Shown here: one piece after another, positions 3 to 1,830 of the stretch
Layout: every line of letters starts with the position of its first letter
Position numbering within the stretch: position 1 is the first letter of the stretch
Assembly (NCBI GenBank): GCA_001781035.1
Contig: MFKK01000008.1
Span: 1-46,372, forward strand
DNA: 46,372 bases
Direction of reading: 5' to 3'
Source: Candidatus Jorgensenbacteria bacterium RIFCSPLOWO2_01_FULL_45_25b
GTDB lineage: Bacteria > Patescibacteriota > Minisyncoccia > UBA6257 > GWB1-50-10
Made by a program: the position numbers and the translations under genes
Notes under the pieces: generated by a model
What the model was told of the DNA's origin: nothing
Database searches by the model: none
Seen by the model: the letters and a program-made list of their open reading frames with translations, nothing else

Positions 3-278
3 AAGAAAATTGCAAATGCGGGCGTAATGGGTCGCGGGCATACCCCGAAGCGTTCTATTCCGGGAGAAAAAATCTCTATCCGTTATGAAGTGCCAAATTT
101 GGACATTGTTTTGCACCCGAAAAAGAAAAGAGGAGAAGGATTTAAGAAGGCTTACACTGATTTTTCGGATAAATATCTAAAAACAAAAATGCTCGCTGTA
201 TTTCCAAACGGATTTGTTGTTTTTACATCACATATTTTTGAGCAAAAGAAAAAAGAGATAGATCAAGTCTCAAAATAA
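3..278 (+). CDS. 3' end of an unidentified protein truncated by the window edge (possibly the partner of the adjacent methyltransferase)
   Basis: Frame is open upstream of the ATG at 27 to the window edge (KKIANAGVMGRG...); tail-to-tail 9-nt overlap with the methyltransferase ORF. Confidence 0.5.
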   Translation, partial: KKIANAGVMGRGHTPKRSIPGEKISIRYEVPNLDIVLHPKKKRGEGFKKAYTDFSDKYLKTKMLAVFPNGFVVFTSHIFEQKKKEIDQVSK

Positions 279-1790
279 TTTTGGAATAATTCTGGCACTT
301 TCTATCATTTTTTCTGCCATTCGAACATAGTCTGGATTTATTTCAAAACCTATATAAGATTGCCCTAATTCTTTTGCGGCAACACATTCCGAGCCGGTGC
401 CAACAAACGGCACTAGGACAACGCCATCTTTTTTAGGTGTAGCCGATTTAATCAATTTTCTAGAAAGCTCAAGTGGTTTTTGTGTAGGGTGCTTCATAAT
501 TTCATGCCCATTATGTTTTTGTAATTGTCGTGGTTCAAAAACATCGTCGCAGGTTTTACACAAAAACCACCTCTCAATCATTCCTGCTCCGCCAGCTAAA
601 GCCGCGATTTTTATAACATCTCTCGGTAGTGCGCCGCCTTCGTGGGCTTTATAGACGGTTTCCAGTCCACTTTTGCTAAATCTGCCAATAGTTCCCCTTC
701 TTACTTTTCCAGCTGCTCCGTTTAAAAATCCTTCTGTGTACGGTTCTCTGACAGCATCTTTATTAAAAATCGGTTTGTCTTTCCATGCACATATAATTGC
801 TTCATGGCTTCTCTGCCAAAAGTTAAGAGAAGCAACATTTTTGTTTGTGTAATGCCAAATTAACCAACGTTTATTTATGGGAATTTCAACGGATAAATAT
901 GCTAATATCTCGCTAAATCCATAAATAAATATTGTTCCTGTTGGCTTCATTATTCGTACGCTTTCATTGATCCATTCTTTACACCACGCCACATATTCGC
1001 TTAATTCTCTTTTATCAATATTATTTCCAAAATCTTTGCCGATATTATATGGAGGATCTATAACAATAACATCACAACTTTCGTTTGGAAGTTTTTTAAG
1101 CTCTACTACCGCATCGCCTAAAATAATTTTATTCAGCGGCAAAGATTTTGTTTTCTTTACTGTAGAGGTAGTAATTTTTTCTGCCTGTAATTCTTCTTCG
1201 TTTTGAATAACATCAACGACAATGCCCTGAATTTTTATATCTCGGTCTTTTCTAATAATTATCGGCTTATAGCTTGAATTGGCGGGCTGTAATCTGATTT
1301 GTGATCGTTCTTGATAGAACTTTTTTAGTGTTGCTTCATAGTTATCTATCAAGGCGACTACTTGTTGACCATTTTCCGCAGCCTCTTGCTGTTTTACTAA
1401 AACAACATCGCCGTCCTTGATATTTTCATCAATCATACTATTCCCACTTACTCGCAAAGCATAAACATCACCACTCTTAGGCAATTTTGTTTTTGGCACG
1501 GCTATAAATTCATGCTGACGGATTGCCTCAATCGGTTCTCCTGCGGCAATAGTTCCCAAAAGAGGAATTTTTACTAAACTAGAAATTGAGTTAGAGATTT
1601 GAATTCCTCTTGCTCGACCATGAGCTTTTTCTAAGTATCCTTTTTGTTGAAGCGTCGTGAGGTGTTCGTGTGTAGTTGATGGAGAAATTTTAAATCGGTG
1701 AGCGATTTCACGCTCCGTTGGCGCAATGCCTTTTTTTGATATTATCTTATTGATATAATCCTTAAGTTGTTTTTGTCGGGGAGTTAGCAT
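270..1790 (-). CDS. LexA-like S24 repressor/protease fused to an N4/N6-type DNA methyltransferase
   Basis: N-term LexA HTH (MLTPRQKQLKDYI...PTEREIAHRFKISPSTTHEHLTTLQQKGYLE), cleavage motif AAGEP, catalytic SGNSM and EATLKKF Lys region; C-term DPPYNIG motif, HPTQKP and a VGTGSE SAM motif. ATG at 1790 preferred over the upstream TTG at 1820. Confidence 0.9.
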   Translation of the reverse strand: MLTPRQKQLKDYINKIISKKGIAPTEREIAHRFKISPSTTHEHLTTLQQKGYLEKAHGRARGIQISNSISSLVKIPLLGTIAAGEPIEAIRQHEFIAVPKTKLPKSGDVYALRVSGNSMIDENIKDGDVVLVKQQEAAENGQQVVALIDNYEATLKKFYQERSQIRLQPANSSYKPIIIRKDRDIKIQGIVVDVIQNEEELQAEKITTSTVKKTKSLPLNKIILGDAVVELKKLPNESCDVIVIDPPYNIGKDFGNNIDKRELSEYVAWCKEWINESVRIMKPTGTIFIYGFSEILAYLSVEIPINKRWLIWHYTNKNVASLNFWQRSHEAIICAWKDKPIFNKDAVREPYTEGFLNGAAGKVRRGTIGRFSKSGLETVYKAHEGGALPRDVIKIAALAGGAGMIERWFLCKTCDDVFEPRQLQKHNGHEIMKHPTQKPLELSRKLIKSATPKKDGVVLVPFVGTGSECVAAKELGQSYIGFEINPDYVRMAEKMIESARIIPKLF

Positions 1791-1810
1791 ATAAATATTA
1801 TAACACTTAT

Positions 1811-1830
1811 ACCCGAGCAAAACCCGAGCA
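1811..1830 (-). promoter_or_regulatory. Candidate operator: two direct copies of acccgagca at 11-bp period upstream of the LexA-methyltransferase start
   Basis: acccgagca at 1811-1819 and 1822-1830; a TATAAT-like box lies between the repeats and the ATG on the minus strand. Confidence 0.5.

What the first reader, a model, noticed from the sequence alone, without database searches (positions are those of the whole stretch)
270..1830. LexA repressor and DNA methyltransferase in one polypeptide: possible SOS-switched modification gene
One uninterrupted ORF has a complete LexA N-terminal half (HTH, Ala-Gly cleavage site in AAGEP, SGNSM serine, EATLKKF lysine region) followed by a DPPY methyltransferase. 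If the LexA part autocleaves after RecA activation, the methyltransferase would be cut from its DNA-binding domain. That would couple DNA damage to promoter derepression and to the location or activity of methylation. Upstream, acccgagca occurs twice at an 11-bp period over the presumptive promoter. This is the same period as the GTTC-N7-GTTC direct-repeat operators known for alphaproteobacterial LexA. The truncated convergent ORF at 3-278 could be a partner nuclease, but its family is unknown.
Basis: partly seen in the sequence, partly recalled or inferred. Interest (0 to 1): 0.88.

Follow-up and report, generated by a model that had tools for sequence, protein, structure and literature searches.

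The report
LexA-fused methyltransferase of TaqI-type restriction system
In many ultra-small Patescibacteria the DNA methyltransferase that protects a cell from its own restriction enzyme is built onto a complete, apparently still self-cleaving LexA repressor that seems to switch off its own gene, so DNA damage should automatically raise the protective enzyme; I found no earlier description of this wiring.

Summary
Confirmed and extended. ORF 270-1790(-) (506 aa, ATG at 1790) is a full LexA (wHTH, Ala83-Gly84, Ser118, Lys156) joined to a beta-class DNA methyltransferase. It is not an assembly artefact: 120 listed relatives are 74-82% identical over nearly the full length, and the named ones are Patescibacteria. 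The truncated convergent ORF 3-278 is the C-terminus of a TaqI-family endonuclease; its other end lies on contig C33, which overlaps the window by 92 nt. This is therefore a type II R-M pair, probably TCGA-specific (TCGA is the most depleted 4-bp palindrome, 0.22 of expected).

The fusion is modular: the LexA half sits on several methyltransferase types next to about 10 endonuclease families. Cleavage and catalytic residues are invariant in 178/178 fusions. Operators of 11-bp period occur almost only at these promoters, and the half-site follows the recognition-helix residue without exception. The operator occurs once in the 803-kb genome, which has a separate lexA and recA.

Best reading: a methyltransferase that represses its own gene through LexA; RecA-triggered self-cleavage lifts repression and raises methyltransferase relative to endonuclease after DNA damage. 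Binding, cleavage and induction are inferred, not measured. New variant of a known kind.

The parts
270..1790 (-). lexA-methyltransferase fusion gene, 506 aa, ATG start at 1788-1790, stop at 270-272
   Evidence: start shared by relatives
1605..1787 (-). LexA winged-helix DNA-binding domain (aa 2-62), recognition helix SPSTTHEHL
   Evidence: PF01726 E 7e-16; helix residue covaries with operator
1215..1565 (-). LexA/S24 autoprotease and dimerisation domain (aa 76-192)
   Evidence: PF00717 E 5e-32; PDB LexA matches
1539..1544 (-). predicted autocleavage site Ala83-Gly84
   Evidence: invariant in 58/58 locus-derived and 120/120 database fusions
1437..1439 (-). catalytic Ser118
   Evidence: invariant 178/178
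1323..1325 (-). catalytic Lys156
   Evidence: invariant 178/178
309..1073 (-). beta-class N6/N4 DNA methyltransferase domain (aa 240-494; DPPY at aa 245-248, VPFVGTG at aa 460-466)
   Evidence: PF01555 E 4e-39; PDB M.BceJIV, CcrM, RsrI, MboIIA matches
1811..1830 (-). operator: direct repeat GCTCGGGT-N3-GCTCGGGT, 11-bp period
   Evidence: repeat class in 48/61 fusion promoters; only match with fewer than 3 mismatches in the 803-kb genome
1797..1802 (-). -10 element TATAAT, preceded by TGT (extended -10), 6 nt before the ATG, so the transcript is probably leaderless
   Evidence: read from the sequence; the consensus scan did not list it because the -35 hexamer is weak
1832..1840 (+). DnaA-box-like TTATCCACA just upstream of the operator
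   Evidence: TGTGNATAA in 45/65 fusion promoters in this orientation against about 0.6 expected
3..278 (+). 3' part of the TaqI-family restriction endonuclease gene, convergent with the fusion (ends overlap by 9 bp); the remainder is on contig C33

Best explanation
This is the modification half of a type II restriction-modification pair with a TaqI-family endonuclease. The LexA N-terminal half makes the methyltransferase its own transcriptional repressor: a dimer binds the 11-bp-period direct repeat in the promoter and holds its own expression down. When the cell suffers DNA damage, including cuts by its own endonuclease at undermethylated sites, the RecA filament promotes cleavage between Ala83 and Gly84. 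The DNA-binding domain separates, the promoter opens, and more methyltransferase is made; the cleaved protein keeps the methyltransferase joined to the LexA C-terminal domain and may stay active. The endonuclease gene lacks such an operator in relatives, so the methyltransferase:endonuclease ratio should rise, a restriction-alleviation and remethylation feedback. In a newly entered cell without the protein the promoter would start open, giving methyltransferase first. Shown by computation: domain make-up, conserved active site, operator conservation and covariation, private operator, partner endonuclease, TCGA depletion. Inferred: DNA binding, RecA-dependent cleavage, induction, methylation of TCGA.
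For: Full LexA plus methyltransferase domains. Ala-Gly, Ser and Lys invariant in 178/178 fusions, while the LexA halves of the 58 locus-derived ones average 59% identity and their methyltransferases are of several unrelated kinds. Operator: 48/61 promoters, 11-bp period only; in 481 kb of loci 70 class-matched sites lie in lexA or fusion promoters and 7 elsewhere, while periods 10 and 12 give 0 and 14. Helix residue E/Q goes with a ..CGG half-site in 18 cases and F/Y/H with TTCTA/TTCGA in 46, no exception (Fisher p 3e-16). Operator private in its genome; separate stand-alone lexA and recA. No operator within 700 bp upstream of the TaqI endonuclease in 13 relatives. TCGA 0.22 of expected in the window, 0.48 in 16 carriers, 0.86 in loci without this methyltransferase. 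Precedents: methyltransferases autorepress through an N-terminal HTH, and R-M imbalance induces SOS (PMC3874152).
Against: No experiment. Conserved S24 residues show selection for autocleavage but not that RecA triggers it. The window's operator sequence (GCTCGGG) is shared with only one close relative (L003), so direct footprinting for this copy is thin. Two of 14 TaqI-type systems (L127, L135) and L029 keep only the wHTH without the S24 domain, so SOS control is dispensable for an R-M system of this kind. Phylogenetic independence of the covariation is weakly supported: 4 of 4 concordant pairs on well-supported branches, 11 pairs on the best tree. The structure model is of low confidence (mean pLDDT 62).
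Confidence: 0.7

Rival explanations
1. Plain autorepressor: the LexA half serves only to bind the operator and dimerise, as the N-terminal HTH does in EcoRII/SsoII-type methyltransferases; self-cleavage is not used as a DNA-damage switch.
For: HTH-only relatives without the S24 domain keep the repeat operator (L127; L135 has a TTAGG variant); HTH autorepression is the known mode.
Against: Ala-Gly, Ser and Lys are invariant in 178/178 full fusions although the surrounding sequence varies; an unused protease should decay, as it has in the short forms by loss of the whole domain.
Confidence: 0.17
2. Constitutive maturation: the protein always cuts itself after synthesis, delivering a free methyltransferase and a short-lived DNA-binding fragment, independent of damage.
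For: The same conserved active site would be needed.
Against: LexA-type domains cut slowly at neutral pH unless helped by RecA (established knowledge of LexA). The Ala-Gly site is canonical, and constant loss of the HTH would leave the conserved operator without a binder.
Confidence: 0.06
3. The fusion is the genome's general SOS repressor that has picked up a methyltransferase.
For: It passes the lexA equivalog cut-off and database records name it 'transcriptional repressor LexA'.
Against: A separate stand-alone lexA with a different promoter repeat exists; the fusion's operator occurs only at its own promoter; genomes carry one to three fusions with different operators.
Confidence: 0.02
4. 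Assembly chimera or annotation artefact.
For: The gene lies near a contig end.
Against: Listed relatives of the same length and domain order, 74-82% identical, from independent assemblies, plus many other LexA-methyltransferase pairs.
Confidence: 0.01

Closest known systems
Autorepressing type II methyltransferases with an N-terminal HTH (EcoRII, SsoII, Ecl18kI, ScrFI; reviewed in PMC3874152)
   Same: The methyltransferase carries its own N-terminal DNA-binding domain and an operator overlapping its own promoter; the repressor is the antitoxin half of the R-M pair.
   Different: There the HTH is a simple regulatory domain without a protease (own knowledge); here it is a complete LexA with an intact autoprotease, so repression can be lifted by DNA damage.
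LexA repressor and the SOS response (direct-repeat LexA boxes; Patescibacteria network of Sanchez-Osuna et al. 2017, PMID 28618189, known only through citation in PMC7739468)
   Same: Full LexA architecture and catalytic residues; direct-repeat operator.
   Different: Fused to a methyltransferase; private operator at its own gene; acts beside a separate stand-alone LexA.
TaqI-family type II R-M systems
   Same: The partner endonuclease matches PF09573 in relatives and TCGA is depleted in carriers.
   Different: The methyltransferase is a beta-class N6_N4_Mtase rather than the M.TaqI type (the latter from own knowledge), carries LexA, and the genes converge.
C-protein-controlled R-M systems
   Same: A dedicated transcriptional controller of an R-M pair; several relatives also have a small XRE gene just before the endonuclease (L008:8215-8433, L006).
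   Different: Here control is by the methyltransferase itself through LexA, and the window's own endonuclease gene has no XRE gene directly before it.

Membership tests
LexA repressor (TIGR00498) | Sequence match over wHTH and S24 domain above the curated cut-off | tested here: met
   190 bits against 111
LexA repressor (TIGR00498) | Ala/Cys-Gly cleavage site and Ser-Lys dyad | tested here: met
   Ala83-Gly84, Ser118, Lys156; 178/178
LexA repressor (TIGR00498) | RecA-stimulated autocleavage | not testable with these tools
   recA is present in the genome
LexA repressor (TIGR00498) | Controls an SOS regulon | tested here: not met
   One operator in 803 kb, at its own promoter
Type II R-M system with TaqI-family endonuclease | Adjacent endonuclease of family PF09573 | tested here: met
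   Relatives' full-length genes match at up to 6e-38; own N-part on C33 matches over the cut-off; the 91-aa window fragment alone does not reach Pfam
Type II R-M system with TaqI-family endonuclease | Recognition of TCGA | tested here: inconclusive
   TCGA depleted: 0.22 in the window, 0.48 in carriers, 0.86 in loci without this methyltransferase
Autorepressing HTH-methyltransferases | N-terminal DNA-binding domain and operator in own promoter | tested here: met
Autorepressing HTH-methyltransferases | Demonstrated repression of own promoter | not testable with these tools
   needs EMSA or reporter
C-protein-controlled R-M systems | Small XRE controller gene before the endonuclease | tested here: not met
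   The window's endonuclease starts about 30 bp after a tRNA-Ala gene; present in some relatives

The most novel reading that the evidence does not exclude
Patescibacteria have a general LexA-based control layer for restriction-modification: a portable LexA half is attached to many unrelated methyltransferases (or, in some loci, sits as a separate lexA gene ahead of the methyltransferase). Its DNA-binding end is exchanged together with its operator, which would give co-resident systems separate addresses, and a DnaA box ties the promoter to replication. Methylation would thus be governed by both DNA damage and the replication cycle.
Probability: 0.35. Interest if true: 0.88.

Novelty: new variant of a known kind. 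Interest (0 to 1): 0.74.

Why it matters
Restriction enzymes are a standing threat to their own host, and how the protective methyltransferase keeps pace when DNA is damaged and resynthesised is an old question. A methyltransferase that is its own DNA-damage sensor would be a direct answer: self-inflicted cuts raise the antidote. The half-site code (one helix residue predicting the operator) makes it testable in E. coli, and recurrence on many methyltransferase types suggests selection for this wiring in reduced genomes. It also warns annotators that many 500-aa proteins named 'transcriptional repressor LexA' are R-M methyltransferases.

Tried and rejected
Assembly chimera: rejected. General SOS repressor: rejected. 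TTG start at 1820: rejected, since relatives start at the ATG. Endonuclease under the same operator: no operator within 700 bp upstream in 13 relatives; the window's own endonuclease follows a tRNA-Ala gene, and the only genomic operator match is at the fusion promoter. Plasmid- or phage-borne: no record covers at least 80% of the protein in the plasmid and phage collections; one IMG/VR contig has a full fusion with a convergent neighbour (L175). Universal in Patescibacteria: no; of 30 C5-methyltransferase loci in the class only 1 is fused and 4 have a separate lexA-like gene just ahead. AlphaFold model too weak for active-site geometry; Foldseek only confirmed the two folds. Paper searches found no description; the key 2017 Patescibacteria SOS paper is not held, and subscription literature and REBASE could not be checked. 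The operator part of the script failed and was rerun.

Full report
Observation. The ORF is real, uninterrupted and correctly described except for its start. Translation from the ATG at 1788-1790 gives 506 aa; Pfam finds LexA_DNA_bind, Peptidase_S24 and N6_N4_Mtase in that order, and NCBIfam's lexA equivalog scores far above its cut-off. The closest solved relatives are Thermotoga maritima LexA (3k2z) for the first half and M.BceJIV (8urk), RsrI, MboIIA and CcrM for the second. The catalytic motifs DPPY (aa 245-248) and VPFVGTG (aa 460-466) come in the order of the beta class.

Host and surroundings. The window is contig C8 of an 803-kb, 38-contig genome. Relatives named in public records are Patescibacteria, apart from unnamed bacteria and one 5-kb contig labelled Ignavibacteria whose fusion is nearly identical to a Patescibacteria one and is probably mis-binned. 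The genome also has a stand-alone LexA on contig C4 (142.6 bits; 33% identical) with a different promoter repeat (ATACACAAC twice at a 10-bp period), and recA.

Partner. ORF 3-278 aligns at 38-55% identity with the C-terminus of a protein of about 231 aa that lies convergent with the fusion in 27 other loci. Full-length versions are RE_TaqI, E down to 6e-38. The missing N-terminal part of the window's gene is on contig C33 (59% identity), whose first 92 bases are the exact reverse complement of the window's first 92; read across, the endonuclease is an intact ORF of 234 aa from the MLEKF methionine, keeping the ELDHQ..D..YDVKK region. It begins about 30 bp after a tRNA-Ala gene. Nine of the TaqI-type modules examined, the window's included, have a tRNA or tmRNA gene within about 700 bp upstream on the endonuclease's strand, which suggests insertion beside such genes. 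TCGA, the TaqI site, is the most depleted 4-bp palindrome in the window (40 seen, 180 expected, 0.22) and in 16 pooled carriers (0.48), against 0.86 in loci without this methyltransferase. TCGA specificity remains a prediction.

How general. Among relatives the LexA half is joined to several methyltransferase kinds: of 37 diverse fusions 31 match N6_N4_Mtase, 5 the C5 DNA_methylase and 1 also N6_Mtase/Eco57I. Abutting genes match MvaI_BcnI, MamI, Endonuclease_7/HNH, Tsp45I, Bsp6I, BglII, ScaI, HindIII and BsaWI families, mostly convergent with the fusion. The C5 fusions form a large family too. In a survey of 392 genomes of the class, all 14 TaqI-type endonucleases with a resolvable neighbour stood beside a methyltransferase with an N-terminal LexA domain: 12 with the full LexA and 2 with the wHTH alone. 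By contrast only 1 of 30 C5-methyltransferase loci was fused, with 4 having a separate lexA-like gene just ahead. So the arrangement is common but not universal.

Is the protease in use? Ala-Gly, Ser and Lys are present in 58/58 fusions from loci and 120/120 from the protein database, although the LexA halves of the former average only 59% identity. This is what selection for self-cleavage looks like. It does not prove that RecA is the trigger.

Operator. In 48 of 61 distinct promoters an 11-bp-period direct repeat is present, mostly between -35 and -10 or abutting the -10; no other period from 6 to 21 exceeds 14. With explicit half-sites, 70 matches fall in lexA or fusion promoters and 7 elsewhere in 481 kb, while the neighbouring periods 10 and 12 give none in promoters. 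Half-site and recognition helix covary: H-E-H or H-Q-H goes with ..CGG (18 cases), H-F-H, H-H-H or H-Y-H with TTCTA or TTCGA (46 cases), without exception (Fisher p 3e-16, which ignores relatedness). On a tree of the S24 part the trait changes about 12 times; 4 independent pairs rest on well-supported branches and all agree, and the best tree allows 11. HTH and operator appear to be exchanged together: L028 and L045 share the HTH (90%) and promoter but not the methyltransferase (24%), whereas L045 and L046 share the methyltransferase (94-97%) but not the HTH (56%). The window's own version, GCTCGGGT-N3-GCTCGGGT with helix SPSTTHEHL, fits the CGG class and is shared with L003. Its only match with fewer than three mismatches in the genome is its own promoter. 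In 13 relatives no operator lies within 700 bp upstream of the TaqI-type endonuclease.

Mechanism. Autorepression by an N-terminal DNA-binding domain is an established mode for R-M methyltransferases, and R-M imbalance is known to induce SOS (PMC3874152). Replacing a simple HTH by a cleavable LexA adds the missing link: damage cuts the repressor, the promoter opens and the methyltransferase rises while the endonuclease does not, because its gene appears to lack the operator. The fragment left after cleavage (84-506) keeps the LexA dimerisation domain and the methyltransferase. Shown: anatomy, conservation, operator code, privacy of the operator. Inferred: binding, cleavage, induction, remaining activity of the fragment.

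A second control. TGTGNATAA, the DnaA box, precedes 45 of 65 fusion promoters in one orientation (about 0.6 expected), including the window (1832-1840). TGTGGATAAC occurs 9 times in the whole genome, against 2 for the reversed control. This may couple the methyltransferase to replication; it was not pursued.

Novelty. No paper in the held library describes LexA-methyltransferase fusions, but the 2017 Patescibacteria SOS paper could not be read; PMC7739468 cites it among examples of direct-repeat LexA motifs. I class this as a new variant of autorepressing R-M methyltransferases, not a new kind.

Noticed in passing
window 1832-1840 and 45 of 65 related promoters: A DnaA box (TGTGNATAA on the coding strand) lies just upstream of most LexA-methyltransferase promoters, about 80 times more often than expected; possible replication coupling.
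   Followed up: partly
L127, L135, L029:3898-5064: TaqI-type methyltransferases with only the LexA winged helix and no S24 domain; L127 keeps the TTCTA repeat operator, L135 a TTAGG variant. Natural controls for what the protease adds.
   Followed up: partly
L154, L158, L162, L165, L057: Separate lexA-like genes directly ahead of C5 methyltransferases (in L154 and L162 with a Vsr-like gene between): an unfused form of the same idea.
   Followed up: partly
L010:7547-8200, L014:7526-8152, L017:7522-8139, L067, L072: Methyltransferases 69-76% identical to the window's stand convergent with proteins that are not RE_TaqI and match no Pfam family where tested (L010, L014): candidate unknown endonuclease families, probably of the same TCGA specificity.
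   Followed up: no
L021:6001-9390: A 1129-aa protein in which the LexA-methyltransferase is followed in frame by an Eco57I/TaqI_C-type second enzyme.
   Followed up: no
L016, L018-L023, L030 promoters: GACTT before the operator and AAGTC before the start codon form an inverted repeat bracketing the promoter in one subgroup; meaning unknown.
   Followed up: no
L125:546-617; L003, L006, L008, L009, L012, L015, L023, L028: The R-M modules often lie just downstream of tRNA or tmRNA genes, in the endonuclease's orientation, suggesting insertion sites.
   Followed up: partly
window 1-46372: GATC (0.31) and GGCC (0.52) are also depleted, hinting at pressure from other restriction specificities.
   Followed up: no
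L175:773-2224: A full LexA-methyltransferase fusion with a convergent neighbour resembling the L073 partner, on a 12-kb contig classed as viral in IMG/VR.
   Followed up: partly
L018: A 5-kb contig labelled Ignavibacteria carries a fusion nearly identical to a Patescibacteria one; probably a binning error.
   Followed up: no
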